Shown here piece after piece: positions 30,083 to 52,338 of a stretch of 64,000 bases of DNA (position 1 is the first letter of the stretch; each line of letters starts with the position of its first letter). This DNA comes from Pseudofrankia coriaricola. Its GTDB lineage: Bacteria; Actinomycetota; Actinomycetes; Frankiales; Frankiaceae. The DNA is taken from assembly GCF_001854805.1 (NCBI RefSeq), contig NZ_MBLO01000102.1, forward strand, positions 1 through 64,000, read 5' to 3'. A program made the translations under genes and the position numbers. The notes below the pieces were generated by a model that was not told the DNA's origin, made no database searches, and saw nothing but the letters and a program-made list of their open reading frames with translations.

Positions 30083-30477
30083 GCTACACGGCGCTCGCGT
30101 GCACCGGTGTGCTGGCCGCCGTGCTGGCGGACGCGCTCGTGTTCCGGGTGCGGCTGGTGCGGCGGCGGGCGTTCTGGGTCGCCTACGCGATCATCGTTGT
30201 CTGCCAGCTGGTGACGAACGGGATCCTCACCGGGTTCGGCATCGTGCGCTACGACTCCGCCACGATCCTCGGCCCGCGGGTCGTGTGCGCTCCCGTCGAG
30301 GACCTGCTGTTCGGCTTCGCCCTCGTCCTGTGGACCCTCGACTGGTGGGTCTGGTGGGGCCGCCGCGACCGCCATCGCCGCGTCAGGGCGCCGGGGGAAT
30401 CGGCGCGTCGAGAGGGAGCCGGCGGATCCACGGCAGATATGGGGTCAGCTCGTCCGGGTCGAAACGGCAGAGCCTGA
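30079..30477 (+). CDS. Lycopene cyclase subunit, CrtYd type
   Basis: This 132 aa partner subunit has the matching motif PVEDLLFGFALVLWTLDWW after ILGPRVVCAPVED, and three membrane helices. It starts with ATG overlapping the previous stop (ATGA), as expected for equal production of the two halves. The family domain ends near residue 100. The last 30 or so residues are encoded within the 95 bp where this gene overlaps, tail to tail, the 3' end of the giant TIR-NACHT-WD40 gene. Confidence 0.85.
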   Translation: MSYTALACTGVLAAVLADALVFRVRLVRRRAFWVAYAIIVVCQLVTNGILTGFGIVRYDSATILGPRVVCAPVEDLLFGFALVLWTLDWWVWWGRRDRHRRVRAPGESARREGAGGSTADMGSARPGRNGRA

Positions 30478-33400
30478 TCGACCACGAGAATCCGCTCCCA
30501 CCCTCGGCGGTCCGTTCCTCGGAGCTCTTGTACGCGCCGTCGGGGAACAACGCCGCCCAGTGGGCGCCCGACAGCCCGAGGAGCGTGGCCATCTCACGCC
30601 CGGCCGCGACGTCCCACAGCCGCGTGGTGCCATCGCCGCCGCCGGATACCAGCATGTCCCCCGCACTGGCCTCGGGGCCTGGGGGACCGTTCGCCACGGG
30701 ACGCTCCGCCATGGCCGCGCGGCCCGGGGCGAACGCCAGCGACCGGATCACCTCGGTATGCCCGGCCAGCCGGCGGGTCTCAGCGCCAGAATCGGTGTCC
30801 CAGACGCGGATGATGCCGTCCTCGCCGCCAGACGCGACCAGCCGGCCGTCGGGCGAGAAGGCGACCGTCCTGACCCGACCGGTGTGGCCCACCAGCCGAT
30901 GGCGCAGCTCGCCGCTCGCCGCGTCCCAGATCCGGACCGTGCCCGATCCGAACGCGCTCGCCAGAAGCTGGCCGTCGGGTGAGAACGCCACCGCGTTCAC
31001 CTGGTCGGCGCGGTTGCCAAGCCGGCGCGCGGCGGGAGCGGTCCCCGACCCGCCCGACGGGCCAGGATCCGGTATCGCGTCCCAGAGGTGGACGGTGCCG
31101 GCGTCGGTGCCGGCCGCGAGTCGCTCGCCATCCGGCGAGAACGCCACCGAGAGCACCCGCAGGCCGTCGGCTCGCAACGTGGCGGTCGGCCGGCCGGTCC
31201 AGGGGTTCCACAGGCCGACCGTGCCGTCTGGATGCCCCACGGCGAGCAGTGTGGTGTCCGGGGAGAAAGCGACCGCGTTCGCCGGGGCTCGCCTCGTGTT
31301 CAGTTTGCGTGCCGGAGTGTCCAGGTCCGGCGGGCCGTCGCCCGACCGGGCGGCGGCGAGGTCGAAGATCCGGACCAGGCCGTCCTCGCCGCTGGCGGCC
31401 AGCAGCGTCGCGTCATCGGTCACGTCCATGCCATAGGTCCAGGCGCGCTCACCCGAGCCGACGTGGACCTGCCGTGCGGTCCGGGTGTCCCAGAGCCGCA
31501 GGGAACCGTCCTCGTTGGCCGAGGCGACCAGCGGCTGGTCCGGTACGAACACGGTCGAGACCACGTCGGTGGTGTGGCTGGCCAGCAACGTCCGGCCCGG
31601 CGGGGATCCGTCGGCGACCTTCCACAGCCGAACCGTTCCGTCCGCGCTGCCGGCGATCAGCGTCTCGCCGTCGGCGTCGACGAAATCCAGCGCGGCCAGC
31701 CAGCCGGTGCGTTCCCGCAGCGTCGCGCGCAGGCCACCTGTACGCGGGTCCCACACGCGGATCGTTCCGTCGGCGGCGCCGACCGCGAGCAGGGAGCTGG
31801 TCGCGTTGAACGCCAGGGTGCGGGCGAGGTGAGTGTCGCCGGGCAGCCGGGCCAGCTCACCGCCGGTAGCGAGGCTCCAGACCCGCGTCGTGTTCTCGCC
31901 GTCGTCGATCCAGGCCAGAAGCCGGCCGTCGGGCGAGAACCGCGATGCCCGGGCGCGCTGGTCCGGTGCGCCGAGCGCACCGGCGTCGCGGCGGGCACGC
32001 ACGTCCCACAGGTGGACCTGGTCGCCGTAGGCCAACAGGGTCCCGTCCGGCGAGAAGCAGAGCGCCTTGACCCGATCCCGAGACCGGCGCAACGTCGCGA
32101 TCCTCTCCCGGACGGTGAGGTCCCAGACGTACACCTCGCCGTCCCAGCAGCCGGCGGCCAGCAGCCGTCCCTCCGGGGAGAAAGCGAGCGACCGCACCCG
32201 GGAGGCGAGCCCGTCGAAGGTGGCGAGTTCCTCGGCCCCGGTGACGTCCCAGATCCGAACGCTGCCCGCGATGTCTCCGGCCGCGAGCAGGGAGCCGTCG
32301 GCGGAGAAGGCGACCGAGCGGATCCACTCGCCATGACCCCGCAGTACGGCGAGCGGCCGGCCGTCGGCGAGGTCCGAGAGGGCGACATGATGGCCGCTTC
32401 CATAGGCGATCAGGTCGTGCGCCGGCGAGATCGCCAGCGTCAGCCGGACGCCCGCGTCGATGATGACGTCGACGGGGTCACGGCCGGGCACGGCGGCGGC
32501 GGCGAGCTCGGGGTCCGCCCGCGACCGGTCCGGCGGGGTGGCGCCGAGCAGCGCGGCGCGTGCCCAGCGGCTGCCGGTGAGGACGGTGTCGGTCAGGTCG
32601 GTGTCGGCGAGGCGGGCCCGGCTCAGGTCGGCGTCGGTGAGGTTCGCGCCCGTCAGCCGCAGGCCGCGGGCGCGGACGCCGGTCAACCGTGCGTGGGTGA
32701 GGTCCGCGCCGTCGAGGGCGGTGTCGTCGAGGTTCGCGTCGGTGAGGTTGGCGCCCCTCAGGTCCGCGCCGGTCAGGTCGAGGCCGGCCAGGTCGGCACC
32801 CTCCAGATGGGCTCCGGCGAGCCGCGCGCCGCGGGCCACCGTCGGGTCGGCCCGCCGCGCGATCGTGAGGGCGTTCGCCCTGGCCGCCTGCCCGGAGTCC
32901 GGGTCGGCGAGCACGCGGCGCGCCCAGGCCGCCACCGCGTCGTCGCCGGAGACGCCGCGGACGAAATCGACCATGAGCGGGGACATCGCCCGCGCGGCCA
33001 GCACGTCCTCGCCGCCGGTCGGGTCGGGAGCGGTCCCGGCGGTCAGGCCGCCCGCGGCGGCGGCGGCGACCAGGTACTCCATCACCGACTGATGGATGAA
33101 GGTGAAGCCACCGTCCTCGGCGCGCACCAGGAGGCTGCCCGAGCCGACCATGTGCGCGGCCTGCCCGGAATCGAGCTGGCCGGCGTCGGCCCGGTCCGTC
33201 ATCGCGTCGAGGGTCGCGCTGGTCGTCGCGGCCAGCTCCGAGAGGTTGATCATCTGATCGGTGGTGCGCCACAGCCGCAGCGCGAGCGCGGTGACGGCCT
33301 CCCGGCGCTCGTCCGCCGTGAGCGTCGGCCCGGCGCCCGGCGGGCGGGCCCGCTGTTCCTCGTGGCGGAGCCACTCGCCGATCAGCTCGCCGTACAGGTC

Positions 33401-36400
33401 CGCCGAACTGATCATTCCGGTCCTGGCCTGGACGGCGCGCAGCCGGTCGGTGTCCAGCGACGCGATGAAGCCCAGCATGCGCGGGTTGTGCGACAGCCCG
33501 AGCAGGTCGCGGATGTCGTGGATCAGCTTGAGGCGCTCACGGGCCCGCGCCGCGTCGCCGTGGTGCAGCCGGACGAGGAACTCCTCGATCTGCTGCTCGG
33601 TGAAGTCGCCCACCTCGGCGATCCGGCTCGCGGGCAGCAGCTCGACCCGGGCGCCGAGCGCGCCGCGGACCTGCCCGTGGGAGAGGAAGTGCTGGGTCCG
33701 GCTGGACACGACGATCTTCGCCTGGCCCTCGACGGCGTCGAGCAGCCGGCTGAGGTGCTCGGCCGCGGTCTCGTAGGTGACCCGCAACGCGAGTTCGTCG
33801 AACCCGTCGAACAGCAGTACCAGCCGGCCGCGGCGCAGCATGTACCGGAGCACCGACACGTCGACCCGCTGCTCGCCCGAGGCGACCAGATGGGCCGCGA
33901 CCAGCTCGTCCACACTGTGCGCCTTCTCCATCGTGCGCAGGTCGATCAGCAGCGGGATCAGGTGCGGCCTGACCTGGGGGAGGGTGCGGGCCAGTTCGTG
34001 CAGGCAGAACGTCTTGCCCCGGCCGAAGTCACCCAGGATCAGCACGAACCGCGCCGAGTCCGCCGTCAGCCAGTCGACGATCTGCCCGAGCAGGTCCCCG
34101 CCGTCGTGGCCGGCCGGGCCGCGGCGCGGCGTCCCGCCGGACATCGTGCCATCCGCCGTGCCCGGGTCGGGGCTGCCTGGGCCGCCTTCGATCAGGCGGA
34201 ACCGCTGCGGCAGGTAGAGCGCGGGCGGGTAGAGCCGGTCGGCCGCCAGCCGTTCGCTCTGGCGGCGCAGGTAGCCGCGCAGGTCCAGCAGGCCCTGGTA
34301 CTCGACGAAGCTGCGCAGCCGCACGCCGCGTACGGCGGCATGGCGGACCAGCTCGTCCGGCGCCGGCAGCGGGCCCCCGTAGACGAGGTCCGAGGTCAGC
34401 TGCGGGTCGGTCGCCGCGTACTGGTGGTGCACGTGCTCGACGAACCGGTCGACGGCGCCCTCGTCGACGCCCTCCTCGGCGATCCCGACCGGCCGCTGCT
34501 CGAACACCGGCCCGTGCGGCACGGTGACCCGCAGGTACTCGGGCGTGACGCCGACGGGTGAGATGCGGGTGACCGTCGCGCCGGGGGACGAGAGCTCGGC
34601 GATCTCCGCGACTCGGTCGGCGAACGTCTCGCCGCGCCGGGTGCCGCGCGCGTCTTCGTTGGTAGGCGGGCCACCCACCCCGCGTTCACCGGTGCTTCGG
34701 CGGCCGCCGCCCGGCGGGTGACCGGAGGAGATTTCGCCGTCGGCGGCCGGTTGCCGCCGAGTCGGGCGGGGGAACGTCGCCGCGGCGTGTTCCCAGCGGG
34801 TCCGATAGGTGACTGTTCCTCCGGGGCCGACCTCGTCGGCGGGCCGCCAGGCGCCGGCGCGGCGGGAGAAGCGGCGGTCCAGCCTGGTCACCTCGCTGCG
34901 GCTGACCCGGACGAGCTGGTAGCGGACGGCGGCCTCGGCGGTCGGCACGGGGTGCGGCGGGTGCGCGCTGATCAGTGCTGTTCCGGAGCGCGGCAGCCGG
35001 GCCGGCGCCGCTGGCAACGGCCTGTTCGGCGCCGGCGCGCCATGCCCGTGCGCGGCGAGCAGGACGTTGAGATGGCCGCCGAGGATCAGGTCGGCGCCGT
35101 CGGCGTCCGCCGCCTTCGCCGAGTGCACCCGGTCGGCCGCGAGCGGCGGGTGGTGGCCGATGGCGACCCGGAACCAGCCGGCGCGTTCGTAGCCGGCGAG
35201 CCGGTCGGCGAACCAGCGAGCCTGCGCCTGGCCGACCTCGCCCCGGTCGTCCGCCGACCGGTGGCTCATCGTCATCGTCGAGTTCAGCCCCACGACGACG
35301 AGCCGCAGGTCCGGCATCGGGTAGAGGGTCCACTCCTGCCCTACGGCGAACGTCCGGTCGTCCAGCTCGCGGTAGAAGCCCGCGTGGAAGTCGACGAAGT
35401 GCCGCCACTTGCGCCAGTACGGCGGCGTCGGCTCGATCTCCTCGTCCTCGCAGGCGGCGAAGTAGGCGCGGGCCGCGGCGGCGCTCACGTCGCCGCGGCC
35501 GGGCACCAGGGCGATCCGGTGAACGGGCAGGCCCAGCCGCTCGGCCAGTCCCGCGAGCCGTGGCCCCGCCTGCTCGTATTCTCCGCGTCGACCTTCCACC
35601 GCGACCCCGGTGACGACCACCAGGTCCGGAGTGATCCCGGGGTTGGCGGCGAGCGCCGCGAGATCGTCAAGGAGCGCCGCGCCGTACGGGTCCTGGCCGG
35701 TGTCCGGCGCGTGGCCGGGACGTGGCGGCACGGCCAGGGCGGGCAGGTGCAGGAGCGTGATCGACGCCCGCTCGCCGCCGCGCGCCTCCGTGTGCTCGGC
35801 CGGCCCGGAGGCCGCCGGCGAGGTGGCGGGCCCGCCGACGGTGGAGCGTGACGGCGGTGGGCGGGTCCAGGCCGCGGGCGCGGCGGGCGCGGCCGGTGGC
35901 CGCTGGGACGACGGCGCCGGCGCCGGCCCCGGCCCCACGGTTGTCCGCCGCGCGAGCGCGGGCGGCATCGACGCCCGCGGGGCGGGCGGCAACGACGGTC
36001 GCGGCAGGCCCGGCGGCGCCGGTGGTGGGAGAGGCGGACCGGCTGGCCCTGGCAGAGACACGACGCCGTCGTCCGTGAGGAGCGCCAGATCGGGGCGGTC
36101 CGGCGCCGGGGTGCCGGATGTCGGCGACGGCCCCGGCGCCGGGGCTGGGAGGGCCATGGCGGCGCCGGTGGCCGGGAGCCTCAGCGTCGGAGCGGGCGGG
36201 GCGAGGTCGTAGCCGGGGAAGGGCGGTTCGTGACCCGGCTCGGGCGGGCCGGTATGCGGCTCCAGCAGCCCCCGCAGCACCGCCTGCGCGGCCGCGGCCT
36301 GGTCAAGACCGGCCAGCACGATCATGTTGATCGTGCCGAGAAGCGGCGGAAGTTCGCACGGCTCCACGAGCACCGGCAGGAGGAAACCGTCCCGGTCGTG

Positions 36401-36682
36401 CGCGATCCGCATCCCGGCCTGCCACTCCTCCCGCACCCAGGACGAGCGGTCGAGGTAGGACGGCGAGATCACCGCGATCATTCGGTCGGCGCGGGCGAGC
36501 GCGGCGTTTATCTGGTCGACGAAGTTCGCCCCGAGCGGGAACGAGCGCCGGTAGAAGGCGACCTCGTGGCCGGCGCTGCGCAGCACGTGGTCCAGCCACC
36601 TGCCCCACCGTTCGTCCGGCCCCGCCACGCTGAGAAAGATCCGCGCCGGGTCACCCGTTGGCGGACCAGTCTCTCCCCACAC
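30383..36682 (-). CDS. TIR - degenerate phosphoesterase - NACHT - pentapeptide - WD40 STAND protein
   Basis: This 2,099 aa protein has at least five parts. TIR domain (about 13-145): SPSYLDRSSWVREEW carries the glutamate (E86) used by NAD-cleaving TIRs. A proline-rich linker follows (150-300). Next is a calcineurin-like phosphoesterase fold (306-545) with most metal ligands replaced. The NACHT NTPase (about 875-1210) has Walker A GDFGRGKT (884-891), Walker B LVLLFDGFDEL (954-964) and a VVSSRTQHF sensor. Pentapeptide repeats run from 1286 to 1370 (ADLTGADLRGANLTDANL type). About 14 WD40 repeats run from 1410 to 2030, enough for two propellers, and a unique tail ends at 2099. The layout is that of STAND immune sensors: WD40 senses, NACHT oligomerises, TIR consumes NAD. 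Role in phage defence is inferred. Start is GTG at 36682 with only a weak AGGA. It may instead serve in signalling or development. Confidence 0.88.
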   Translation of the reverse strand: MWGETGPPTGDPARIFLSVAGPDERWGRWLDHVLRSAGHEVAFYRRSFPLGANFVDQINAALARADRMIAVISPSYLDRSSWVREEWQAGMRIAHDRDGFLLPVLVEPCELPPLLGTINMIVLAGLDQAAAAQAVLRGLLEPHTGPPEPGHEPPFPGYDLAPPAPTLRLPATGAAMALPAPAPGPSPTSGTPAPDRPDLALLTDDGVVSLPGPAGPPLPPPAPPGLPRPSLPPAPRASMPPALARRTTVGPGPAPAPSSQRPPAAPAAPAAWTRPPPSRSTVGGPATSPAASGPAEHTEARGGERASITLLHLPALAVPPRPGHAPDTGQDPYGAALLDDLAALAANPGITPDLVVVTGVAVEGRRGEYEQAGPRLAGLAERLGLPVHRIALVPGRGDVSAAAARAYFAACEDEEIEPTPPYWRKWRHFVDFHAGFYRELDDRTFAVGQEWTLYPMPDLRLVVVGLNSTMTMSHRSADDRGEVGQAQARWFADRLAGYERAGWFRVAIGHHPPLAADRVHSAKAADADGADLILGGHLNVLLAAHGHGAPAPNRPLPAAPARLPRSGTALISAHPPHPVPTAEAAVRYQLVRVSRSEVTRLDRRFSRRAGAWRPADEVGPGGTVTYRTRWEHAAATFPRPTRRQPAADGEISSGHPPGGGRRSTGERGVGGPPTNEDARGTRRGETFADRVAEIAELSSPGATVTRISPVGVTPEYLRVTVPHGPVFEQRPVGIAEEGVDEGAVDRFVEHVHHQYAATDPQLTSDLVYGGPLPAPDELVRHAAVRGVRLRSFVEYQGLLDLRGYLRRQSERLAADRLYPPALYLPQRFRLIEGGPGSPDPGTADGTMSGGTPRRGPAGHDGGDLLGQIVDWLTADSARFVLILGDFGRGKTFCLHELARTLPQVRPHLIPLLIDLRTMEKAHSVDELVAAHLVASGEQRVDVSVLRYMLRRGRLVLLFDGFDELALRVTYETAAEHLSRLLDAVEGQAKIVVSSRTQHFLSHGQVRGALGARVELLPASRIAEVGDFTEQQIEEFLVRLHHGDAARARERLKLIHDIRDLLGLSHNPRMLGFIASLDTDRLRAVQARTGMISSADLYGELIGEWLRHEEQRARPPGAGPTLTADERREAVTALALRLWRTTDQMINLSELAATTSATLDAMTDRADAGQLDSGQAAHMVGSGSLLVRAEDGGFTFIHQSVMEYLVAAAAAGGLTAGTAPDPTGGEDVLAARAMSPLMVDFVRGVSGDDAVAAWARRVLADPDSGQAARANALTIARRADPTVARGARLAGAHLEGADLAGLDLTGADLRGANLTDANLDDTALDGADLTHARLTGVRARGLRLTGANLTDADLSRARLADTDLTDTVLTGSRWARAALLGATPPDRSRADPELAAAAVPGRDPVDVIIDAGVRLTLAISPAHDLIAYGSGHHVALSDLADGRPLAVLRGHGEWIRSVAFSADGSLLAAGDIAGSVRIWDVTGAEELATFDGLASRVRSLAFSPEGRLLAAGCWDGEVYVWDLTVRERIATLRRSRDRVKALCFSPDGTLLAYGDQVHLWDVRARRDAGALGAPDQRARASRFSPDGRLLAWIDDGENTTRVWSLATGGELARLPGDTHLARTLAFNATSSLLAVGAADGTIRVWDPRTGGLRATLRERTGWLAALDFVDADGETLIAGSADGTVRLWKVADGSPPGRTLLASHTTDVVSTVFVPDQPLVASANEDGSLRLWDTRTARQVHVGSGERAWTYGMDVTDDATLLAASGEDGLVRIFDLAAARSGDGPPDLDTPARKLNTRRAPANAVAFSPDTTLLAVGHPDGTVGLWNPWTGRPTATLRADGLRVLSVAFSPDGERLAAGTDAGTVHLWDAIPDPGPSGGSGTAPAARRLGNRADQVNAVAFSPDGQLLASAFGSGTVRIWDAASGELRHRLVGHTGRVRTVAFSPDGRLVASGGEDGIIRVWDTDSGAETRRLAGHTEVIRSLAFAPGRAAMAERPVANGPPGPEASAGDMLVSGGGDGTTRLWDVAAGREMATLLGLSGAHWAALFPDGAYKSSEERTAEGGSGFSWSIRLCRFDPDELTPYLPWIRRLPLDAPIPPAP

Positions 36683-37131: not shown

Positions 37132-37362
37132 TCAGCTCGGGTCGAACTCGCCCCCGCGGACGCCGGTGAGGAACGCGTCCCATTCGGAGTTGCTGAAGGC
37201 GAGGACCGGGCCCTTCGGGTCGGTGGAGTCGCGCAGCAGCATGCCGCCGTGGACGGGGGCCGCCTCGACGCAGTCGACGCGATAGGGGCTGGCGGAACTC
37301 TTGTGCCAGGCGAGCTGGTCCTGGTCGACGGTCGCGAGCGTGGATCGCATGTCTCGGCTCAT
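37132..37362 (-). CDS. DUF397 domain protein
   Basis: This 76 aa protein matches the DUF397 family throughout: WHKSSASPYRVDCVEAAP, LLRDSTDPKGPVLAFSNSEW, AFLTGVRGGEFD. These small proteins abound in actinobacteria and usually sit beside an XRE-type helix-turn-helix regulator; no such partner is here. ATG at 37362 has AGGAGGA upstream with good spacing. Function is unknown, possibly a regulator's partner. Confidence 0.92.
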   Translation of the reverse strand: MSRDMRSTLATVDQDQLAWHKSSASPYRVDCVEAAPVHGGMLLRDSTDPKGPVLAFSNSEWDAFLTGVRGGEFDPS

Positions 37363-44083: not shown

Positions 44084-47000
44084 TCAGGCGGGGCGGCGGT
44101 AGACACGGGTCGCGGTGAGGACGCCGGTGGCGGCATCCGGGCGGCCGCCGGCGGCCGGCAGGCCGCGGCGCAGATGTTCCTCGACGCGGAGGTATTTCAG
44201 CCCGGCGCGCAGGTCGGCATCGTTCCGTAGCCTGATCACCAGCGGGAAGGCGGCCAGGGCGGCCGTGTCGAACAGGCCGGTGGTGTAGACGAGCTGGACA
44301 CCGAGCCGGTCGGCGACGGCAAGCTGCAGGTCGAGCAGGTAGCCGGCGGAGGCGCGGCCGATCGGGTTGTCGAGGAACAGCACGCCGGCGTGCGGGGTGC
44401 GCAGCTGGCCCCTGTCGTTGGCGCGCAGCGCCGCCATCGTGCAGTAAAGGATGATGGCCGCGGTGAGCTGCTGGCCGCCGGAGAACACGTCGCCAAGCTC
44501 GGACACCCGGACCCGCTCGGTGCGCAGCACCGCGTCCGGCTTGAGCACCTCGACCCGCACGCCGCGCGGGAGGGCGGCGCGCACCCCGCGCAGGAGCAGC
44601 GCCATCCCGTCCAGCCGTGCCATCGGCGCCCGGCCGCCACCGGCGGCGGCGCCTGCGCCGGCCGCCTGGCCTCCCGGCACCGCCGCCGCGGGCCCACCTT
44701 GCCCGGCCGCCGCGGGCCGGCCCTGCGCGGCCGCGGCGTCGACGACGTCGCCGAGCGCGTCGGCGAGCGTCGCCGCCTCGGGATCCGCGAACGAGATCCG
44801 CAGAAACTCCTGGCCGGACCAGTCGCCGAGCTGGTCGGGCAGCCGGGACAGCCGCTGCGCGGCGCGCAGCGTGCCGAGCGCGGCACGGACCATGCCCTCC
44901 AGCCGGGCCACGATCGCCGCCCGGTTGCGGCCGATGTGCGCGAGGTCGTCGTCGAGGCTGCGCAGCCGGGGTGCCAGCGCGTCGGCCCAGGCGACGGCGT
45001 TCGCCGCGACCGCCTCGCGCCCGGCGCGGACCATCTGGCGGCGGGCGGGCGCCCGGACGCCCTCGAACCGATCCTGCCCGGCCCAGGCGGCGACGGCGTC
45101 CGCCGCGGCGCGCACGGCGGCGGCGGCCGTCGCGAGCCGCGCGGTCGCCGCCCGCCAGCTGTCGCGGGCCGACCGCGCCGCGGAACGGGCCTCCTCGGGA
45201 CCACCTCCGAACGTGGCGGCCCCGGCCGGCCCGCCGGCGCCCGTACCACCGGCCGCCGCGCCGCCCGCGGTCGCGACGTCGTCGCCGGGGTTCTCGCCAG
45301 ACCGGCGAATCCGAGCTGGCTGATCCGCCGGGAGGTCCGCCGGCCGGTCCGGGGCGTTCGCGGTGTCGGCGATCGCCTCGGTGAGCGTGTCGGCGACGGC
45401 GCGGAACGCGGCGAGCGTGCCGTCGTGCTGACTGGCGAGCACCCCGAGCCGCTCACGCCCCGCCCTGGCGCGCCCGAGCTCCGTCTCGGCGGCGCGGACG
45501 GCGGCGAACGCCCGTCCCAGCAGTTCCTCGGCGTGCCGTGCGTCGGCGGGCACCTGGTCGCCGGTCAGCGGGCCAGCGCGTCGGCGACGCGCCTCCTCAC
45601 TGGTGGCGCGGACCTCCTCGCGCAGGCCGCCGACCCGCTCCCGCATCTCGTCCAGCTCGGCGGTCAGTGCCTCGGCGCGCCGCCCGGCCGTGGCGGCGGC
45701 CGCGGCGCGCGAGGCCGCGTCGGCGCCGTCGGGCCCGTCCAGCAGCTCGCGCGCGGCCCGCCGGACCTCGGGCGTGAGCGCATCCAGAGCGGCCCGGGCC
45801 GCGGCCTCCTCCCGGCGGGCCAGCTCCAGCGCGGCGGTCAGGTCGGCGCCGACGGCGACCTGCTGGTACGTCCGGGTCGCCGCCTCGTAGCGGGCCCGCA
45901 GCACCGCCACCGCGACCCGCGGCGCCTCGTCACCTCCGCCTGCGCCCGGCACGCCACCATGGCCTTGACCGCCGCCGGCTCCCGGGCCGCTCCCGGTCTC
46001 GGAGGCACTGTCGACCTCCGCGCCCGCGCCGATGACCTCGGCGGCCTCGGCTCGGGCCGCGTCCGCGGTGCGGCGGGCGCCGTCCGCCTCGCGGCGCGCC
46101 TCGGCGCCGGCGCGGCGGGCGGTGGTGGCGGCGGCGCGGTGCGCCTCGGCCGCCGCGGCCAGCCGCGCGGCGGTCGCGGCCAGCTCGTCCGCGTGGGCGA
46201 GGTCCTCGACCGGGCTGCCGATCGCGCGGGCCAGCCGGTCGAGCTCGCCGGCCCTGGCCACGGCGCGCTGCTCGGCCGCGCGCAGCGACTCGACGGCGGC
46301 GAACGCCCCGTCCGCCGCGGCCCGGGCCTCCTCGGCCCGCGCCGTCGTCCCGGCGAGCGCGCTCGCGGCGTCGGCCGCGGCGTCCCGGGCGGCGGCGAGC
46401 TTCGCGGCCAGCGCCGCGACCCGGCCCGGTGGGCAGGTGCGCCGCCAGCCCATGAGCGCGGCCGTCAATGCCCTGTCCGCCTCGACCCTCGCGGAGAGCT
46501 CGGCCGTGAGCCGGGCCCGGTCGTCCTGGCGCCGCTGGGTCGCGGACCGCTCTGTGGCGGCCGCGTCCGTGTCGTACAGTGCCGGGTTCGGCGGCACGAC
46601 GAACACCAGCCCGTCAGACGCCGGTCCGTCGCTGGCGCGGCTCACGCGCTCCGCGCCCTCGGCGGGGCCGGCCACGTCGTCAGGGCCGGCCGCGGTACCA
46701 AGACCAGCCGCGGTGCCAAGGCCGGCCGCGCCGCGGGCGGCGGCCGCGCCGCGGGGAGCGGCGAACGCGGCCGGCGTGGCGACGGTGACGGCCGCGTTGG
46801 GGAGAAGGCGGGCGGCGAGGAGGACCTCGCGGGCGCGCGCGAGCGTGGCGCCCGCGCCGTCCGGGTCCCGCGCGGTGACGACTACCCCGTCGGCGACGTC
46901 GGGACGCCCGCGCCACACGGCCTCGCGGTCGGCGACGGGCACCGCGCGCGCCAGGTACGCCCAGCCGGGCTCGGCCGCGATCCCGGCCCCGGTCAGCGCC

Positions 47001-49333
47001 GCGCACACCGCGAGCACCTCGGGCCGGGCCGGGCGAAGGTCGTCGTCGCCGAGCGCGGCGAGCACCCGACGGTCCGCGTCGGACTCGACGGTCAGCTCCA
47101 GCCTGCGCCGCTCGCCCGCCGCCACGGCGGCCCGCAGCGCCGCGAGGGCCTCCTCGGCCACCCTGTCCAGTCCCGCCGCGGCGGCGGGGGCCGCCGCCGC
47201 GAGGCCGAGCAGGGCGGCGATCCTGCCGTCGGCGGTGACGGCCGCGGCGTCGTCGTCGGCAGCCGCGACCTGGTCGGTGAGCGCCGCGGCCCTCGCCTGG
47301 GCGGCGTCGCCGGCCCGCTCGGCCCGCCGGCTCGCCTCGGCCGTCGCGGTGCGCTCCCGGTCCAGCCGGCCGACCTCCGCGAGCGCCTCCTGGATCGCCG
47401 TTGCCGCGGCGCGAGCCGCGTCGGCCGCGTCCGCCGCGGCCTCGCCCAACGATGCGTGGCCGATGGCCGTGTCCCCGGACACGCCGAGCGACCACGGTCG
47501 GTCCGGCAGAGACGAAGCGTGGTCGGCTGTCGTGTCTGGAGGGTCGCCCACCGACCACGATCCGGCGCCGGCGCCGCTGCCGCTGCCTGCGCTGTCGACG
47601 TCGGCAGCGGTCCTGGCGGTGCCGGGGAGCAGGCCGCCGGCGGCCGCGGCGGCCAGCGCGGTCGCGGCCGCCTCGACCCGGTCCCGGGCCGCGCGTTCGC
47701 CGGCGCGGGCGGTGGCGGCCTCGTCGAGGGCGCGGCGCTCGGCCTCGGCCGCCGTCTCGGCATCCTGGTCCTGCCCGGTCGCGCGCCGCTCGGCCTCGTC
47801 GGCGGCGGCGCGGGCGCGAGCCGCGGCCGCCAGCAGCCCGGCGACCAGCGCGCGGGCGGCGGCGTCCCGGTCGGCCAGCGCCGGCGCGGCGGTGTCACGG
47901 GCCTCGGTGACCAGCGTTGTCAGCCGGGCCGCCTCGGCGCTCGCCGCCGCGAGCCGCAGCGTGTCCGCGCTCGCCCGCCAGCCCTCGACCACCGTCGCCG
48001 TCGCCTTCGCCGCGGTGACCAGCTCGTCGCGGGCCGCCTGAGCGTCGGCGAGGCGCAGCTCGGCGAGCCGGCGGCGCAGCGCGGCCACCAGGTCGCCGGC
48101 GTGCGCCCGGCCCCCTTCGGCGGTGGCCTCCGCGTCGCCGGCCGCCGCGAGCTGGGCCGTGAGCCCCGCGCGGTCGGCCTCACCGGCCCGCAGCCGTCCG
48201 TCCACTCCCGCGGCGAGCCGGGCGATCTCGACGCGGGCGGCGTCCAGCCCCACCTGGGCCACGTCCCGGTCGCGCAGGGTGTCGACGAGGACGGACAGCC
48301 GGTCCAGCGCGCCCGCGACGAAGTCGCGCTCGGCGGCGAGCGCCGCCCGCTCGGCGAGCTTGGCCGCGTAGCCGTCGACGACCTCGGCCACGCCGGCGGG
48401 GTCCTCCGGTGGTGTCACCGCGCGCAGCAGGAAGTCGACGAACCCCTCGTCGGTGGTGAACGCGAACGCCTCCGCCGCCTCACCCTCGCCGGCGTTCATG
48501 GCGCGCTGGTAGCGGAACAGCTCCGGGTCGAGGCCAAGGGCGTCCAGGTGCTCCAGCCAGGCGCCCTGATGAGTCTCCCAGGTCAGGTCGAGCGCCGGGT
48601 CGGCGGCGTGCGCGTGGGTCATCGCCTCGCGGAACCCGGCGAGCGTCACCAGCCGGCCGTCGCGGCGTAGTGGGAGGGTCGTGAGGTCTGTGCCACCAGG
48701 GCCGCCGGACGGGCGGAACGAATACCAGGCGTCGGCGAGCCGGCCGCCGTCGGCCGGGCCACGCCCGCGCCACTCGCTCACCTTGCCGGTCACGACCCGC
48801 TCGCCGGTCACCGCGTGCTGCCACTCGCAGATCACCTGGCCGCAGTCCCTGGGCAGCACGAAGTTGTCCAGCACCCGTCCGTTGGACGTGCCGACGACGT
48901 GCCGGCGCCCCGGCAGCACGACGGAGAAGATCAGCTTCATCAGCACGCTCTTGCCGCCGCCGTTCTCCAGGAACAGCACGGTGGCCGGCGACGCCCGCCG
49001 CCGCACCGGCGGCTCCCCGCCCAGCTGCCACCCGGCCGGCGCCGCGTCAGCCGACGGGCCGCTACCTGGTGCGCCGGCCGTCAGACCCGTGGTGGCGGCG
49101 GAGCTGGCCCCCGCACCGGTCTCCGTGCCGGCGTCCGGGCCCGTGCCTCCCGGATCACCGGCACCGCCTGCCGCTGGCGGCGGCGCCGGCTGGGCGGAGA
49201 CGAGGTCGAACATCGAGTCCTGACGCGGCCCCGCCACCGGCCCGCCGACGCCGGAGAAGTCGAGCAGCACGTCGCCGAAGCGGGCACCCCGAGGCCCGAT
49301 CGAGTGCAACCGCACCCGTGCCAGCTCATACAT
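44084..49333 (-). CDS. MukB/JetC-like SMC ATPase
   Basis: This 1,749 aa protein has the SMC plan. The N-terminal ATPase half carries Walker A FLENGGGKSVLMKLI (G-loop 123-129). A very long Ala/Arg/Glu-rich coiled-coil region (about 300-1580) follows. The C-terminal half has signature DVFSGGQQLTAAIILY (about 1617) and Walker B GVLFLDNPIGRASAGYLL. The residue after the Walker B aspartate is asparagine (about 1656), where SMC and MukB enzymes have the catalytic glutamate. A low-complexity insert of about 60 residues precedes Walker A. The ATG at 49333 overlaps the upstream gene by 8 bases. With the two upstream genes it forms a condensin-like complex of the MukBEF/MksBEF/Wadjet kind. A palindromic repeat lies within the coiled coil. 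Confidence 0.82.
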   Translation of the reverse strand: MYELARVRLHSIGPRGARFGDVLLDFSGVGGPVAGPRQDSMFDLVSAQPAPPPAAGGAGDPGGTGPDAGTETGAGASSAATTGLTAGAPGSGPSADAAPAGWQLGGEPPVRRRASPATVLFLENGGGKSVLMKLIFSVVLPGRRHVVGTSNGRVLDNFVLPRDCGQVICEWQHAVTGERVVTGKVSEWRGRGPADGGRLADAWYSFRPSGGPGGTDLTTLPLRRDGRLVTLAGFREAMTHAHAADPALDLTWETHQGAWLEHLDALGLDPELFRYQRAMNAGEGEAAEAFAFTTDEGFVDFLLRAVTPPEDPAGVAEVVDGYAAKLAERAALAAERDFVAGALDRLSVLVDTLRDRDVAQVGLDAARVEIARLAAGVDGRLRAGEADRAGLTAQLAAAGDAEATAEGGRAHAGDLVAALRRRLAELRLADAQAARDELVTAAKATATVVEGWRASADTLRLAAASAEAARLTTLVTEARDTAAPALADRDAAARALVAGLLAAAARARAAADEAERRATGQDQDAETAAEAERRALDEAATARAGERAARDRVEAAATALAAAAAGGLLPGTARTAADVDSAGSGSGAGAGSWSVGDPPDTTADHASSLPDRPWSLGVSGDTAIGHASLGEAAADAADAARAAATAIQEALAEVGRLDRERTATAEASRRAERAGDAAQARAAALTDQVAAADDDAAAVTADGRIAALLGLAAAAPAAAAGLDRVAEEALAALRAAVAAGERRRLELTVESDADRRVLAALGDDDLRPARPEVLAVCAALTGAGIAAEPGWAYLARAVPVADREAVWRGRPDVADGVVVTARDPDGAGATLARAREVLLAARLLPNAAVTVATPAAFAAPRGAAAARGAAGLGTAAGLGTAAGPDDVAGPAEGAERVSRASDGPASDGLVFVVPPNPALYDTDAAATERSATQRRQDDRARLTAELSARVEADRALTAALMGWRRTCPPGRVAALAAKLAAARDAAADAASALAGTTARAEEARAAADGAFAAVESLRAAEQRAVARAGELDRLARAIGSPVEDLAHADELAATAARLAAAAEAHRAAATTARRAGAEARREADGARRTADAARAEAAEVIGAGAEVDSASETGSGPGAGGGQGHGGVPGAGGGDEAPRVAVAVLRARYEAATRTYQQVAVGADLTAALELARREEAAARAALDALTPEVRRAARELLDGPDGADAASRAAAAATAGRRAEALTAELDEMRERVGGLREEVRATSEEARRRRAGPLTGDQVPADARHAEELLGRAFAAVRAAETELGRARAGRERLGVLASQHDGTLAAFRAVADTLTEAIADTANAPDRPADLPADQPARIRRSGENPGDDVATAGGAAAGGTGAGGPAGAATFGGGPEEARSAARSARDSWRAATARLATAAAAVRAAADAVAAWAGQDRFEGVRAPARRQMVRAGREAVAANAVAWADALAPRLRSLDDDLAHIGRNRAAIVARLEGMVRAALGTLRAAQRLSRLPDQLGDWSGQEFLRISFADPEAATLADALGDVVDAAAAQGRPAAAGQGGPAAAVPGGQAAGAGAAAGGGRAPMARLDGMALLLRGVRAALPRGVRVEVLKPDAVLRTERVRVSELGDVFSGGQQLTAAIILYCTMAALRANDRGQLRTPHAGVLFLDNPIGRASAGYLLDLQLAVADRLGVQLVYTTGLFDTAALAAFPLVIRLRNDADLRAGLKYLRVEEHLRRGLPAAGGRPDAATGVLTATRVYRRPA
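45287..45339 (+). repeat. Palindromic element inside the SMC gene (copy F, diverged)
   Basis: The ends GGGGTTCTCGCCAGACCGGC and GATCCGCCGGGAGGTCCG match the intergenic copies; the centre has diverged. On the minus strand it encodes LPADQPARIRRSGENPG, near residues 1332-1349, interrupting the alanine-rich coiled coil with Pro, Gly and Arg. Confidence 0.6.
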
Positions 49334-50264
49334 CGGCGCGCCCCTCGGCCGGGGTTCCCGCCGGATCCGCGGAGGTCGCGGGCGCGCCGGCGTCGAGGAG
49401 GTCGGGAGCGGACGGGACGACACGCAGGCCGCCGTCGGGGGTGGCGACGGTGACGACGCCGAGCGCGAGCAGCTCCTCCATCGCCGCGTCGGCGGCCAGC
49501 TCGCGGACCTGCACCTGGTAGCGCGGGGTGGTGCGGAACGTGCCGCCGCCCTCCTCGCCGACCTGGACCAGACAGCCCGACTCGACGAGGAACCCCATGG
49601 CCCGGGCGATGATCCCGGTCGTCGACCCGGAGAGCCTGCGCGAGTCCCTGGTCGTCCCGGTCGCCGGCCTGCGGGCGTAGAGCCGCCAGGCCGCCTCCAG
49701 TCGTGGTTCATCCTCCGGCGGCGGGTCGCCGGGGCCGGGGACGGCGGAGCCGCTGGCCCCGGCCTCGAGCAGCCGGGCGGCCTCCCGGACGAACGCGTCC
49801 ACCCCGTCGACGCTGACCCGCCCGACATAGGAGTCGTCGGTGAGGTCGGCCGGGCGGGGAAACGCGAGCGCGGCGATCGCGAGCTGCGCCAGCGCGTGCA
49901 GCATCCGGTCGGCGGCGCGGTGCTCGCCGCCGGCGCGCCGGGCGTAGTCGCTGATCCGCACGGTGAAGGCCGAATCCGCGGTGCCGCCGGCGACCAGCCC
50001 CGCCCGGTCGGAGACATCCAGGACGACGATGCCCAGCCCGTCCGCGACCGCGTGCGTCAGCGCCGCGAAGCCGGGCTCGTGCACGTAGCGGCGGACCAGT
50101 TCGCGGTAGCGCGCGTCCCGCGCCGGCACCAGCCGGGGCCGCAGCCCGAACGCCACCAGCTCCGCCGCGTCCCGCGCCACCGCCTCGACCGGCGGGCCTC
50201 CGCCCCGCCAGGACGGTGTGGCCGTGCCGGCGTCATCCTCGGCCGCCTCGACGGGCAGGTTCAC
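49326..50264 (-). CDS. MukE/JetB-like (kite) subunit, putative
   Basis: This 312 aa protein sits between the kleisin-like and SMC-like genes, the usual place of the winged-helix kite subunit. Its last part reads as winged-helix-like: IIARAMGFLVESGCLVQVGE followed by FRTTPRYQVQVRELAADAAM. Assignment is mainly by position and size. GTG at 50264 overlaps the upstream stop in GTGA. The C terminus (ATSADPAGTPAEGRADV) is formed partly by a truncated palindromic repeat at 49351-49379. Confidence 0.65.
   Translation of the reverse strand: MNLPVEAAEDDAGTATPSWRGGGPPVEAVARDAAELVAFGLRPRLVPARDARYRELVRRYVHEPGFAALTHAVADGLGIVVLDVSDRAGLVAGGTADSAFTVRISDYARRAGGEHRAADRMLHALAQLAIAALAFPRPADLTDDSYVGRVSVDGVDAFVREAARLLEAGASGSAVPGPGDPPPEDEPRLEAAWRLYARRPATGTTRDSRRLSGSTTGIIARAMGFLVESGCLVQVGEEGGGTFRTTPRYQVQVRELAADAAMEELLALGVVTVATPDGGLRVVPSAPDLLDAGAPATSADPAGTPAEGRADV
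49351..49379 (+). repeat. Palindromic element, partial copy G, at a gene end
   Basis: GGGGTTCCCGCCGGATCCGC and GGAGGTCG match both ends of the element with the centre missing. It lies in the last 20 codons of the kite-like gene, in the same orientation and frame as copy A. Confidence 0.55.
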
Positions 50265-52135
50265 CGCGCACCCACCAGGTCGGTCGTGGTGGGGGTGGGC
50301 GCGGCCCGTCCGCCCTCGCCGGTCCTGGTCTCCGGCTCGGTGCCGGCGTCGGTAGCCCTGGTCCCAGCGGATTCGGTCCCGGTGGCCTTGGTCTCGGCAA
50401 CGTCGGACTCGGCGGCTTCGGTCTCAGCGGCCTCGGCCTCGGCCTCGGTTGGGCCGGGGCGGTCGGTGACCGTGACGCGGCCGACGAGCAGGTCGGCGCC
50501 GGCGAACTCGGGGTCGTCCAGCGGCGTGCCGTCGTCGACCGCGAGCAGCGGCCGCTCGCCGGCCGCCGCCTCGGCGCCGTCAGCCGGACCCGGGTGGCTG
50601 GCCGTGGCGTCGCCGACGCGTCCGGGTTTCCCGCCGAGCCGGTGTGGCTGGCCAGGCAGGTCCGCGACCGCGGCGAGCCGTGGGCTCACGGCGTGCAGCG
50701 TGAGCAGGGCGAGCAGCTGGGCCACCTCGAGGGCGACGGCCTCGCTGCCCGCCCGGGCCCTGGCCTCGGCGAGCAGGCCGGACAGCCGCCGCGGCGCGTC
50801 CGGGTCGATCTCGTCGAGCAGCTCGAGCGCGAGCCCCCACGCGTCGTCGCCGAACCGGGGCGGCTCCTCCCAGGCGACCAGCTCGGCCTCCGGGACCGGC
50901 GCGCCCAGGGTGTCGCGCTCGGCCGGCGGGCGCAGCAACGCGTCGACCAGGTCGGCCAGGCGCGGCGCGCGCGGCGGACGGACCCCGGCGGCACCGGGGA
51001 AGAAGGCCGCGGCCACCTGGCTCGCCTCGCTGAGCGGGCGGGCGAGCGTCGGCGCGAGCAGCTGGGTGTACAGGTCGACACCGGTCCCGCCGCCAGCCGC
51101 CGGAGCCGCGAACTGCTGGCGGTCCTGCTCCGCCCGGAACACCGCGAACGCCTCCTGCAGGCGGGCCTGCAGCTGGGTGTGCCGGCGCACGCAGTCCGCG
51201 ACGATGGTGACGAGGTCGGCCGCGGCCCGCTTGTGCGCCGGGTCCTCGGCCGAGTCGCGGTAGCGGCGGATGTGGGTGAGGATCGCGTTCTCGTGCCGGT
51301 ACCGGGCCTCGACGTGGCCGAGCGCCTCGTCGACCAGCGCCGGCAGCGTGTGCAGCCAGTCGACGGACAGCACGTCGCGCCGGGTGCCTTCCAGGCTCCG
51401 GCGCAGCTGCTCGGCGTACTGCACGGTCCGGTAGCGGGCCGCCTCGGCGGCCGTGCGCGCGTCGGAGAGCCGGCCACGGCGGATCAGGTTGTCCAGCGTC
51501 ACCTCGGCGGCGACCTGGGCGGACGTGACGTCGGTGTCCAGCGCCCCGACGAGCACGGTGACGGCCTCGTCCGTGGCGCGCAGGTAGATCTCGCCGGCAG
51601 GGTCGGCGAGCTCGACGAGCAGCTTGAAGTCGAACCTGCGCCGCTCGTAGCGGCCGTCCGGGTGGTACGTGCCGTAGACCGTGTCGAAGCCGCGGTCGAC
51701 GCTGCCCACGTTGATCAGGTTGTCGAGCACCCAGCGGGCGGCCCGCTCGTGCTCGGCCGCGGGCCGCCGCGGTGCCTGCGCGGCGGCGAGCGGGGTGAGG
51801 CGGCGAAGCACCTGGTCGTGGCTGGCGCCCCGGTCGAAGTCCATCGCGACCGTCACCAGGTCGATGGCGTGCAGCGCCAGCTCCGCCATCGCGTAGACGG
51901 CGAAGTCGGCGCCGTCGAGCAGGCGCTTGCGCGCGTCCAGGTCATGCAGCGGCGCCGTCAGCGCCAGCGCCTTCAACCGGCGGGCCATCCCGTCGTCGGC
52001 CGCGCCCGGCGCCGTGCCCCGGGCGACCGCCGAGCCGTCCCGGCCGCCGGCCGGCCCGGCCGCGCCGAGGACGCGGGCCGCGCCGCCGGGATAGGGCGGT
52101 GCGTCCGGGGGCTCGGTCGGGATCGGCGGGCACAT
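50261..52135 (-). CDS. MukF/JetA-like (kleisin) subunit, putative
   Basis: This is the first gene of the SMC operon, 624 aa. It is helical and rich in Ala/Arg/Leu, with conserved-looking stretches DARKRLLDGADFAVYAMAEL, ERAARWVLDNLINVGSVDRG and LRRSLEGTRRDVLSVDWLHT. These fit a kleisin with a winged helix and a helical middle. The last 110 residues are acidic low complexity (ETEAAESDVAETKATG). Identification is by operon order and size, so the exact family is uncertain. The ATG at 52135 lies 7 bases after minus-strand TAACCT; the frame upstream has no support. Divergent from terD. Confidence 0.65.
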   Translation of the reverse strand: MCPPIPTEPPDAPPYPGGAARVLGAAGPAGGRDGSAVARGTAPGAADDGMARRLKALALTAPLHDLDARKRLLDGADFAVYAMAELALHAIDLVTVAMDFDRGASHDQVLRRLTPLAAAQAPRRPAAEHERAARWVLDNLINVGSVDRGFDTVYGTYHPDGRYERRRFDFKLLVELADPAGEIYLRATDEAVTVLVGALDTDVTSAQVAAEVTLDNLIRRGRLSDARTAAEAARYRTVQYAEQLRRSLEGTRRDVLSVDWLHTLPALVDEALGHVEARYRHENAILTHIRRYRDSAEDPAHKRAAADLVTIVADCVRRHTQLQARLQEAFAVFRAEQDRQQFAAPAAGGGTGVDLYTQLLAPTLARPLSEASQVAAAFFPGAAGVRPPRAPRLADLVDALLRPPAERDTLGAPVPEAELVAWEEPPRFGDDAWGLALELLDEIDPDAPRRLSGLLAEARARAGSEAVALEVAQLLALLTLHAVSPRLAAVADLPGQPHRLGGKPGRVGDATASHPGPADGAEAAAGERPLLAVDDGTPLDDPEFAGADLLVGRVTVTDRPGPTEAEAEAAETEAAESDVAETKATGTESAGTRATDAGTEPETRTGEGGRAAPTPTTTDLVGAR

Positions 52136-52338
52136 CGGACGAAGGTTACCGGCGACGCGGCCGAGGCCGGCCGGCCACGAGCGCCAGCCGCCGCGCTGAG
52201 TCATCGAATCGACACGGAGGTGGAGGAAGCAGGGCTCACCGGCACGGTCAACGGGGGCGTGGCAACGGGTGTCCGGCGTCTGCCAGCGGACAAGATTCAG
52301 TCTTCCGATTTGTATGGGCAGTACTAGGCTTTGTGGCC
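52136..52338. promoter_or_regulatory. Divergent promoters of the SMC operon and terD
   Basis: Minus-strand TAACCT (plus 52143-52148) and plus-strand TAGGCT (52325-52330) lie 7 and 8 bases before their respective ATG codons. Both genes therefore seem leaderless and are controlled from this 203 bp spacer. Confidence 0.6.

What the first reader, a model, noticed from the sequence alone, without database searches (positions are those of the whole stretch)
30383..36682. Giant five-module STAND protein: TIR - phosphoesterase fold - NACHT - pentapeptide - WD40
Seen in the sequence: one uninterrupted 2,099-codon frame with an N-terminal TIR (putative catalytic E86), an NTPase with intact Walker A GDFGRGKT and Walker B LLFDGFDEL, a pentapeptide-repeat spacer and about 14 WD40 repeats. 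Known: TIR and NACHT/STAND proteins act in bacterial immunity, with the sensor triggering oligomerisation and NAD loss. Inferred: this is an abortive-infection-type sensor. The central phosphoesterase-like and pentapeptide modules between TIR and WD40 are an arrangement I do not recognise as described.
Basis: partly seen in the sequence, partly recalled or inferred. Interest (0 to 1): 0.93.

Follow-up and report, generated by a model that had tools for sequence, protein, structure and literature searches.

The report
Bacterial NLR-like sensor with dead phosphatase
A giant single protein from a soil actinobacterium is built like an animal or plant immune receptor (alarm enzyme, ATP switch, sensor wheel), and it keeps inside it a well-preserved but apparently dead copy of an enzyme that other bacteria use against viruses, so it is a new variant of a known kind of immune protein.

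Summary
In detail: one uninterrupted 2,099-codon frame, on the minus strand, with a TIR domain (E86), an intact NACHT switch (K890, DGFDEL), pentapeptide repeats and 14 WD40 blades. The 'phosphoesterase fold' is real and belongs with the metallophosphatase of the published anti-phage systems DS-8 and DS-9 (NCBIfam NF053862 matches 36 of 36 family members tested). In this protein it has lost four of seven predicted metal ligands, yet it evolves under constraint similar to the NACHT's (dN/dS about 0.21 against 0.15-0.21). So it looks like a retained pseudoenzyme. The same six modules occur in 29 of 59 NA-iREase3 frames examined, in Frankiaceae and three other actinobacterial families. Only four of 36 readable copies keep a near-complete metal site (6 of 7 ligands), all in the window's family. 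Best reading: a STAND/NLR-type immune sensor that kills or arrests the cell through TIR NAD+ cleavage, with the dead metallophosphatase as a regulatory or ligand-binding module. Immune function is inferred, not shown. The gene lies between metabolic genes, though Wadjet-like jetA/jetC genes lie 7.4 kb away. New variant of a known kind.

The parts
30383..36682 (-). whole gene, 2,099 aa, GTG start at 36682, stop at 30383-30385
   Evidence: codon-position GC
36293..36640 (-). TIR domain, residues 15-130; catalytic-type Glu86 at 36425-36427
   Evidence: Pfam TIR_2 9.7e-26; E in 44 of 50 aligned TIR domains
35783..36262 (-). Pro/Ala-rich linker, residues 141-300
   Evidence: sequence; fast-evolving, dN/dS 0.48-0.62
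34763..35776 (-). degenerate calcineurin-like metallophosphatase (MPE) module, residues 303-640; lost metal ligands map to A315, A317, the missing Asp after G359, and R396; kept are a motif-IV His (H511) and H545/H547
34280..34630 (-). NA-iREase3 (NACHT-associated inactive restriction endonuclease), residues 685-801
   Evidence: Pfam PF22739 9.8e-38
33560..34051 (-). NACHT NTPase, residues 878-1041; Walker A K890 at 34013-34015; Walker B DGFDEL
   Evidence: Pfam NACHT 7.8e-12; conservation
32549..32827 (-). pentapeptide-repeat segment, residues 1286-1378, about 18 repeats
   Evidence: Pfam Pentapeptide 1.9e-27; register
30572..32440 (-). 14 WD40 blades, residues 1415-2037, probably two seven-bladed propellers
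   Evidence: model mean pLDDT 72.7, pTM 0.58; Foldseek hits include full-length Apaf-1 and a double seven-bladed propeller at modest TM-scores
30386..30562 (-). short C-terminal tail, residues 2041-2099, recognisable in the Nonomuraea relative
   Evidence: alignment

Best explanation
It is a single-protein STAND (NLR-like) sensor. The 14-blade WD40 region recognises an unknown trigger; the NACHT domain (intact Walker A and B) exchanges nucleotide and oligomerises; the clustered TIR domains then cleave NAD+ and arrest or kill the cell. Between effector and switch lie two enzyme folds without evident catalysis: a metallophosphatase of the DS-8/DS-9A kind that has lost most of its metal site, and NA-iREase3. 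I propose that they act as regulatory or ligand-binding modules, most likely reading a nucleotide or holding the TIR in the off state. Shown here: anatomy, conservation, loss of predicted metal ligands, constraint on the degenerate domain, recurrence. Inferred: immunity, trigger, oligomerisation, NADase activity, role of the dead domain.
For: Frame and modules. TIR Glu in 44 of 50, Walker K in 55 of 56 (1 gap), D959/D962/E963/R995 in 56 of 56. All six modules in 29 of 59 NA-iREase3 frames; the order of whichever of TIR, MPE, iREase3 and NACHT are present is the same in 59 of 59. Metallophosphatase module: NF053862 'anti-phage phosphoesterase' in 36 of 36 members tested, best 1.3e-30; family profile hits the solved phosphodiesterase Rv0805 at 3.9e-11. 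In DS-8 (metallophosphatase + NACHT) mutation of predicted metallophosphatase residues or of a NACHT residue ablated phage defence, and in DS-9A metallophosphatase mutation caused a loss of defence (passages of PMC13092281). Degeneration: window 3 of 7 ligands; four paralogues in the same family keep 6 of 7. Constraint: MPE dN/dS 0.205-0.218, NACHT region 0.150-0.209, linkers 0.43-0.92, WD40 0.27-0.39 in three pairwise comparisons. Wadjet-like jetC/jetA 7.4 kb upstream. Inactive REases paired with NTPases are said in print often to act as nucleotide sensors (passage of PMC12839542).
Against: No activity or phenotype known to me for any member. Immediate neighbours are thiamine-synthesis, SDR and acyl-CoA dehydrogenase genes, syntenic in P. 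asymbiotica, and no relative was found in the phage and viral collections searched, so it behaves like a resident chromosomal gene. In 6 of 50 TIR domains the Glu is lost. PADLOC has no matching STAND model. The window-clade profile of the metallophosphatase alone found no solved structure at E 0.1. The metallophosphatase/iREase segment could not be modelled (mean pLDDT 33.4), so a 'regulatory pocket' is untested.
Confidence: 0.6

Rival explanations
1. The dead metallophosphatase is only a relic or folded spacer: an ancestral DS-8-like effector was superseded by the TIR and what remains is kept for folding and length.
For: 15 further family members with TIR and NACHT lack the module altogether, with 34-106 residues between TIR and iREase3, so the architecture can do without it. 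Decay is scattered: the four 6-of-7 copies and three decayed copies share one supported 7-row group, while the window's decayed clade lies elsewhere in the tree.
Against: Constraint similar to that on the NACHT region (dN/dS 0.21), and invariant stretches shared with the Nonomuraea relative from another family, such as YW.KWRHF and GLNSTM.MSH.
Confidence: 0.15
2. Not anti-phage: a cell-death or stress switch in mycelial life (development, self-recognition, plasmid or toxin stress) built from the same parts.
For: Metabolic neighbourhood conserved between the window and P. asymbiotica; no match in the phage and viral collections searched; in a sister clade 17 of 19 members lie beside a CitMHS/ArsB-type permease gene (one permease tested in Pfam), and other neighbours there are core genes such as coaE and an S1-domain gene.
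Against: The nearest characterised homologue of the middle module is an anti-phage protein; jetA/jetC nearby; the WD40 region evolves faster than TIR and NACHT.
Confidence: 0.18
3. The metallophosphatase module is still catalytic, using the three remaining His ligands in an unusual one-metal site.
For: H511, H545 and H547 are kept in the window and its four nearest relatives.
Against: Both motif-I ligands, the bridging Asp of motif II and the motif-III Asn are gone in the window and its five nearest relatives, and the most distant of these (L041) has also lost the motif-V histidines.
Confidence: 0.07

Closest known systems
DS-8 (metallophosphatase-NACHT anti-phage protein, DefensePredictor, PMC13092281; passages read)
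   Same: one protein with a metallophosphatase homologous to this module and a NACHT switch
   Different: in DS-8 the metallophosphatase residues are essential; here most of the metal site is lost, a TIR stands N-terminal to it, and iREase3, pentapeptide and WD40 modules are present (TIR and WD40 do not occur as terms in the DS-8 paper); the model NF053861 does not match the full protein at E 0.01
DS-9A (taken to be NCBIfam NF053862 'DS9_1', by name)
   Same: closest named family for the metallophosphatase module, 36 of 36 members tested match
   Different: DS-9 is a two-gene system with a HAD phosphatase; the window scores 30.4 bits against a cut-off of 420
NLR/Apaf-1-type STAND receptors
   Same: N-terminal effector, NTPase switch, C-terminal double WD40 propeller; Apaf-1 is among the top fold hits
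   Different: TIR effector instead of CARD; extra dead-enzyme modules; NACHT, not NB-ARC, is the best Pfam match
TEP1/NWD1/NWD2 and Swarozyc (TIR-like DUF4062 NADases, PMC13174449; passages read)
   Same: TIR-like NADase + NACHT + WD40 logic proposed for TEP1
   Different: DUF4062 is a different TIR-like family; the terms metallophos and phosphoesterase do not occur in that paper
Multi-domain conflict systems of multicellular prokaryotes (PMC7159879, PMC8195603; passages read)
   Same: an overlapping parts list: TIR, calcineurin-like phosphoesterase, REase, NACHT, pentapeptide, WD40
   Different: those passages describe vWA/MoxR ternary, GTPase-centred and TRADD-N systems; this order in one chain is not in the passages read
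Rv0805-type class III cyclic-nucleotide phosphodiesterases
   Same: best solved homologue of the metallophosphatase family profile
   Different: window lacks four of the seven metal ligands (ligand positions recalled, counted)

Membership tests
STAND/NACHT NLR-like sensors | NTPase with Walker A and Walker B | tested here: met
   K in 55 of 56 (1 gap), D/D/E in 56 of 56
STAND/NACHT NLR-like sensors | N-terminal effector and C-terminal repeat sensor on the same chain | tested here: met
   TIR 15-130, WD40 1415-2037
STAND/NACHT NLR-like sensors | ligand-triggered oligomerisation | not testable with these tools
   needs purified protein
TIR NADase | TIR fold with catalytic Glu | tested here: met
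   TIR_2 9.7e-26; E86 conserved in 44 of 50; by sequence the only solved hits at E 0.001 are human TLR1 TIR chains, 4.9e-5 ('human' recalled)
TIR NADase | NAD+ cleavage | not testable with these tools
   biochemical assay needed
DS-8 (NF053861) | curated model cut-off 790 bits | tested here: not met
   not listed for the whole protein at E up to 0.01; 9 of 36 isolated modules match weakly, best 8.2e-10
DS-8 (NF053861) | intact catalytic metallophosphatase residues (essential in DS-8) | tested here: not met
   3 of 7 predicted metal ligands left
DS-9A (NF053862) | curated model cut-off 420 bits | tested here: not met
   30.4 bits, E 1.8e-7, residues 350-523: homologous domain, not the equivalog
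Calcineurin-like / class III cNMP phosphodiesterase | fold homology | tested here: met
   36-row family profile against Rv0805 3.9e-11; Metallophos in 16 of 36 members at E 0.01. Against: the six-row window-clade profile alone found nothing at E 0.1
Calcineurin-like / class III cNMP phosphodiesterase | two-metal site | tested here: not met
PADLOC-listed STAND defence systems | match to a listed model over the protein | tested here: not met
   four partial hits: three over the TIR region (two short-pAgo TIR models, PDC-S66) and one weak hit over the NACHT P-loop (mad8, E 0.0013)
vWA/MoxR ternary conflict systems | adjacent MoxR AAA and vWA genes | tested here: not met
   no such domain among the 20 flanking frames scanned; small frames were not scanned

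The most novel reading that the evidence does not exclude
The dead metallophosphatase is an integrated decoy or signal receptor: a retired immune phosphodiesterase built into an NLR-like protein as a trap that senses either phage phosphoesterases (or whatever blocks the active DS-8/DS-9-type enzyme) or the cyclic nucleotide that the enzyme once cleaved, releasing the neighbouring TIR. That would be a bacterial counterpart of the integrated decoy domains of plant NLRs, with possibly active dual-effector relatives still present in Frankiaceae.
Probability: 0.14. Interest if true: 0.85.

Novelty: new variant of a known kind. Interest (0 to 1): 0.52.

Why it matters
DS-8 and DS-9 showed that a metallophosphatase can be essential in an anti-phage system. 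This family appears to show what can happen next: a TIR stands in front, and the metallophosphatase loses its metal site but is kept under selection, with decay traceable across paralogues and families. That gives a natural series (6 of 7 ligands, partial, degenerate, absent) in which to ask whether immune receptors recycle retired effectors as sensors or regulators. It also adds a set of actinobacterial TIR-NACHT-WD40 receptors, with an Apaf-1-like layout, to compare with eukaryotic NLRs.

Tried and rejected
Structure of the middle: AlphaFold2 on residues 301-830 with three sequences gave mean pLDDT 33.4 and was not used. A six-row window-clade profile of the metallophosphatase found no solved structure at E 0.1; only the 36-row family profile did. 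The NACHT region alone found only three chance-level DNA polymerase lambda sequences at E 0.04-0.06. Phage records and IMG/VR contigs: no relative (the second scan works from short patterns). Plasmid collection: 17 records, of which only the Nonomuraea record (a chromosome-size entry) reached the metallophosphatase region.

Considered and rejected: (1) that a separate phosphatase gene beside MPE-less members (L029, L050, L052, L084) shows functional linkage: it does not match the MPE profile at E 0.01, looks exported to me, and all four loci are from one genus. (2) That all 18 'none' rows of the tree lack MPE: three (L045, L056, L083) are broken or partly unread frames, and the MPE of L045 is in the next frame, so the count used is 15 and the 'changes' figure is overstated. 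(3) That the 'no TIR' label of L048 is real: Pfam finds a TIR there; L047 has its TIR in another frame. L085 does appear TIR-less with a 6-of-7 metal site. (4) 'No defence genes near', my first reading: corrected when PADLOC found JetC and JetA.

Rows dropped: L040 (no hit to my NA-iREase3 model) from all counts, leaving 59 of 60 loci; a second short frame of L037; L047 and L049 (cut modules) from the 36-member alignment; rows without a NACHT hit (3) from the 56-row tree. One sub-cut-off place was not fetched. The WD40 and pentapeptide tallies rest on simple models and undercount weak blades.
Full report
What is there. The finding's interval is one open frame on the minus strand, 2,099 residues from a GTG at 36682 to a stop at 30383, with the codon-position GC bias of a real gene (0.76/0.57/0.91). 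It is more than chance: an orthologue of 2,139 aa with 85% identity exists in Pseudofrankia asymbiotica. Module order, with residues: TIR 15-130; Pro/Ala linker; metallophosphatase-like (MPE) 303-640; NA-iREase3 685-801; NACHT 878-1041; pentapeptide repeats 1286-1378; 14 WD40 blades 1415-2037; short tail. The NA-iREase3 module, which Pfam describes as a NACHT-associated inactive restriction endonuclease, was missed.

Who has it. NA-iREase3 was found in 20 of 41 genomes (the window's own and 40 relatives), in 36 of 393 genomes drawn from the class (24 of the 35 listed genomes of the window's family, plus families f17: 8, f18: 3, f37: 1) and in 2 of 396 genomes drawn across the phylum, one of them the window's own and the other below the cut-off. 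It rang in 0 of 14 control genomes. Other phyla were not tested. The window's genome has one copy. I examined 60 loci; 59 carried the domain by my own model. Of these, 29 have TIR, MPE, iREase3, NACHT, pentapeptide and WD40 modules, 26 of them with both ends inside the locus; the order of the first four is the same wherever they occur, and the positions are. A second form lacks the MPE, with TIR and iREase3 34-106 residues apart (15 members). One member, L085, has the MPE but no TIR. In Frankia sp. AgB1.9 the frame ends at the start of the pentapeptide region and no WD40 part was found in the stretch held. A Nonomuraea gerenzanensis protein of 1,850 aa has all six modules, at 37% identity over the BLASTP-aligned part.

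What the 'phosphoesterase' is. Alone, the window region is sub-threshold in Pfam (Metallophos, 17.4 bits against 21.5), and a profile of the window clade alone found no solved structure. With 36 family members the identity is clear: Metallophos in 16 of 36; NCBIfam NF053862 'anti-phage phosphoesterase' (DS9_1) in 36 of 36, best 1.3e-30, DS8 in 9 and a 3',5'-cyclic-AMP phosphodiesterase model in 5; the family profile hits the solved phosphodiesterase Rv0805 (from Mycobacterium tuberculosis, recalled) at 3.9e-11. The DefensePredictor paper (PMC13092281; passages read) reports DS-8 as one protein with a metallophosphatase and a NACHT domain, and DS-9A as a homologous metallophosphatase; changing predicted metallophosphatase residues ablated defence by DS-8 and caused a loss of defence in DS-9, and a NACHT change ablated DS-8. 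That NF053861 and NF053862 stand for DS-8 and DS-9A is taken from their names. Mapping seven metal ligands (positions recalled for the Rv0805 type; alignment, counted): the window and its four nearest relatives keep 3 of 7 (motif-IV His and the two motif-V His) and have lost both motif-I ligands, the bridging Asp and the Asn. Four paralogues of the same family (L031, L032, L053, L085) keep 6 of 7, with Gln for the motif-I His. So the window's module is a pseudoenzyme by sequence.

It is not drifting freely. In three pairwise comparisons (window against L002, L042, L043) dN/dS was 0.205-0.218 for this module, 0.150-0.209 for NACHT and the region after it, 0.132-0.250 for TIR, 0.107-0.234 for iREase3, 0.307-0.632 for the pentapeptide segment, 0.274-0.392 for WD40, and 0.43-0.92 for the two linkers (Nei-Gojobori, related pairs, so not independent). 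The tree of 56 iREase3-NACHT segments puts the window in a supported clade of six decayed copies (100/99); the four 6-of-7 copies sit in another supported group of seven (100/100) that also holds three decayed copies. If complete metal sites are not regained, decay happened at least twice. The tree is rooted at the midpoint only, and three 'none' labels in it are artefacts of broken or unread frames.

Active parts. E86 is kept in 44 of 50 aligned TIR domains; the six exceptions are L027, L034, L035, L036, L092 and L093. K890 is kept in 55 of 56 (one gap), and D959, D962, E963 and R995 in 56 of 56. The WD40 region modelled at mean pLDDT 72.7; fold hits include a double seven-bladed propeller and full-length Apaf-1, with TM-scores (query-normalised) of 0.53 and 0.38. 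The highest ungapped identity among 13 roughly placed blades is 55%, so there is no sign of recent blade amplification.

Surroundings. Downstream lie a thiamine-phosphate-synthase-type gene, an Rv2175c-type gene, and further on thiG; upstream a DUF397 gene, an SDR and an acyl-CoA dehydrogenase. Of 12 flanking frames tested, 9 were found beside the gene in P. asymbiotica, the eight nearer ones at 88-98% identity and JetC in pieces at 82-98%; the other three (thiG and two beyond it) would lie past the end of the stretch held. PADLOC identifies JetC3 at 44084-50017 and JetA3 at 50261-52360, a Wadjet-like operon whose near end lies 7.4 kb upstream of the gene. JetC was found in the P. asymbiotica locus and in none of the other loci searched, but most of those stretches are too short to reach as far. 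A 312-aa frame between them (49326-50264) sits where jetB should be but matched no Pfam model; I saw no jetD. In a sister clade of 19, 17 members have a CitMHS/ArsB-type permease gene beside them, divergent upstream in 11 and downstream on the same strand in 6; the window gene does not.

Mechanism. Established knowledge of STAND receptors and TIR NADases (recalled; the Apaf-1 and TEP1 model is in the passages) gives the main path: WD40 trigger, NACHT assembly, TIR NAD+ cleavage. The two dead-enzyme modules between effector and switch are the open point. A recent paper states that inactive REases paired with NTPases often act as nucleotide sensors in immune systems (PMC12839542, passage). I take a regulatory or ligand-binding role as most likely for both, with a mere spacer and an integrated decoy as rivals. 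For the decoy idea I saw only abstracts and outlines of two papers: a phage metallophosphoesterase that counters host defence (PMC12287305) and Panoptes, which guards a nucleotide pool (PMC12657218).

Novelty. My literature searches (open-licence PMC full text only, returning no paper) listed no paper whose listing or passages that I read describe these six modules in one chain, nor a dead DS-8/DS-9-type metallophosphatase in an NLR-like protein. The parts and the metallophosphatase-NACHT pairing are known. I therefore file it as a new variant of a known kind.

Noticed in passing
window 44084-52360, minus strand: Wadjet/JET-like operon: JetC3 (frame 44084-50017; likely true start at an internal ATG near 49336), a 312-aa frame in the jetB place (49326-50264) and JetA3 (50261-52360). 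No jetD seen.
   Followed up: partly
L003 7221-8465 and 16 other loci (L025 L026 L030 L044 L051 L054 L072-L079 L082 L087): A CitMHS/ArsB-type permease gene lies beside the TIR-MPE-NACHT-WD40 gene in 17 of 19 members of the sister clade, on either side of it depending on lineage. Suggests a functional partner; only one was tested in Pfam.
   Followed up: partly
L031, L032, L053, L085: Paralogues in the window's family keep 6 of 7 metal ligands in the metallophosphatase; three of them also carry a TIR with its Glu (possible dual-effector receptors), while L085 has no TIR (closer to DS-8).
   Followed up: partly
window 37132-37362, minus strand: 76-aa DUF397 gene between the SDR gene and the giant gene, same strand.
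   Followed up: no
L001 3554-7354: In Frankia sp. AgB1.9 the orthologue ends at the start of the pentapeptide region and no WD40 part was found in the stretch held, although the G001 and G002 relatives (L042, L043) are full length.
   Followed up: no
L003 13991-19086: Next to the Nonomuraea gene, on the other strand, lie a KAP-NTPase gene and a 1,226-aa protein with a weak NACHT match (20.4 bits, cut-off 26.7), possibly further conflict genes.
   Followed up: no
L024 1-2850: An nSTAND1-WD40 gene (950 aa held, cut at the locus end) lies next to an MPE-less TIR-iREase3-NACHT-WD40 gene.
   Followed up: no
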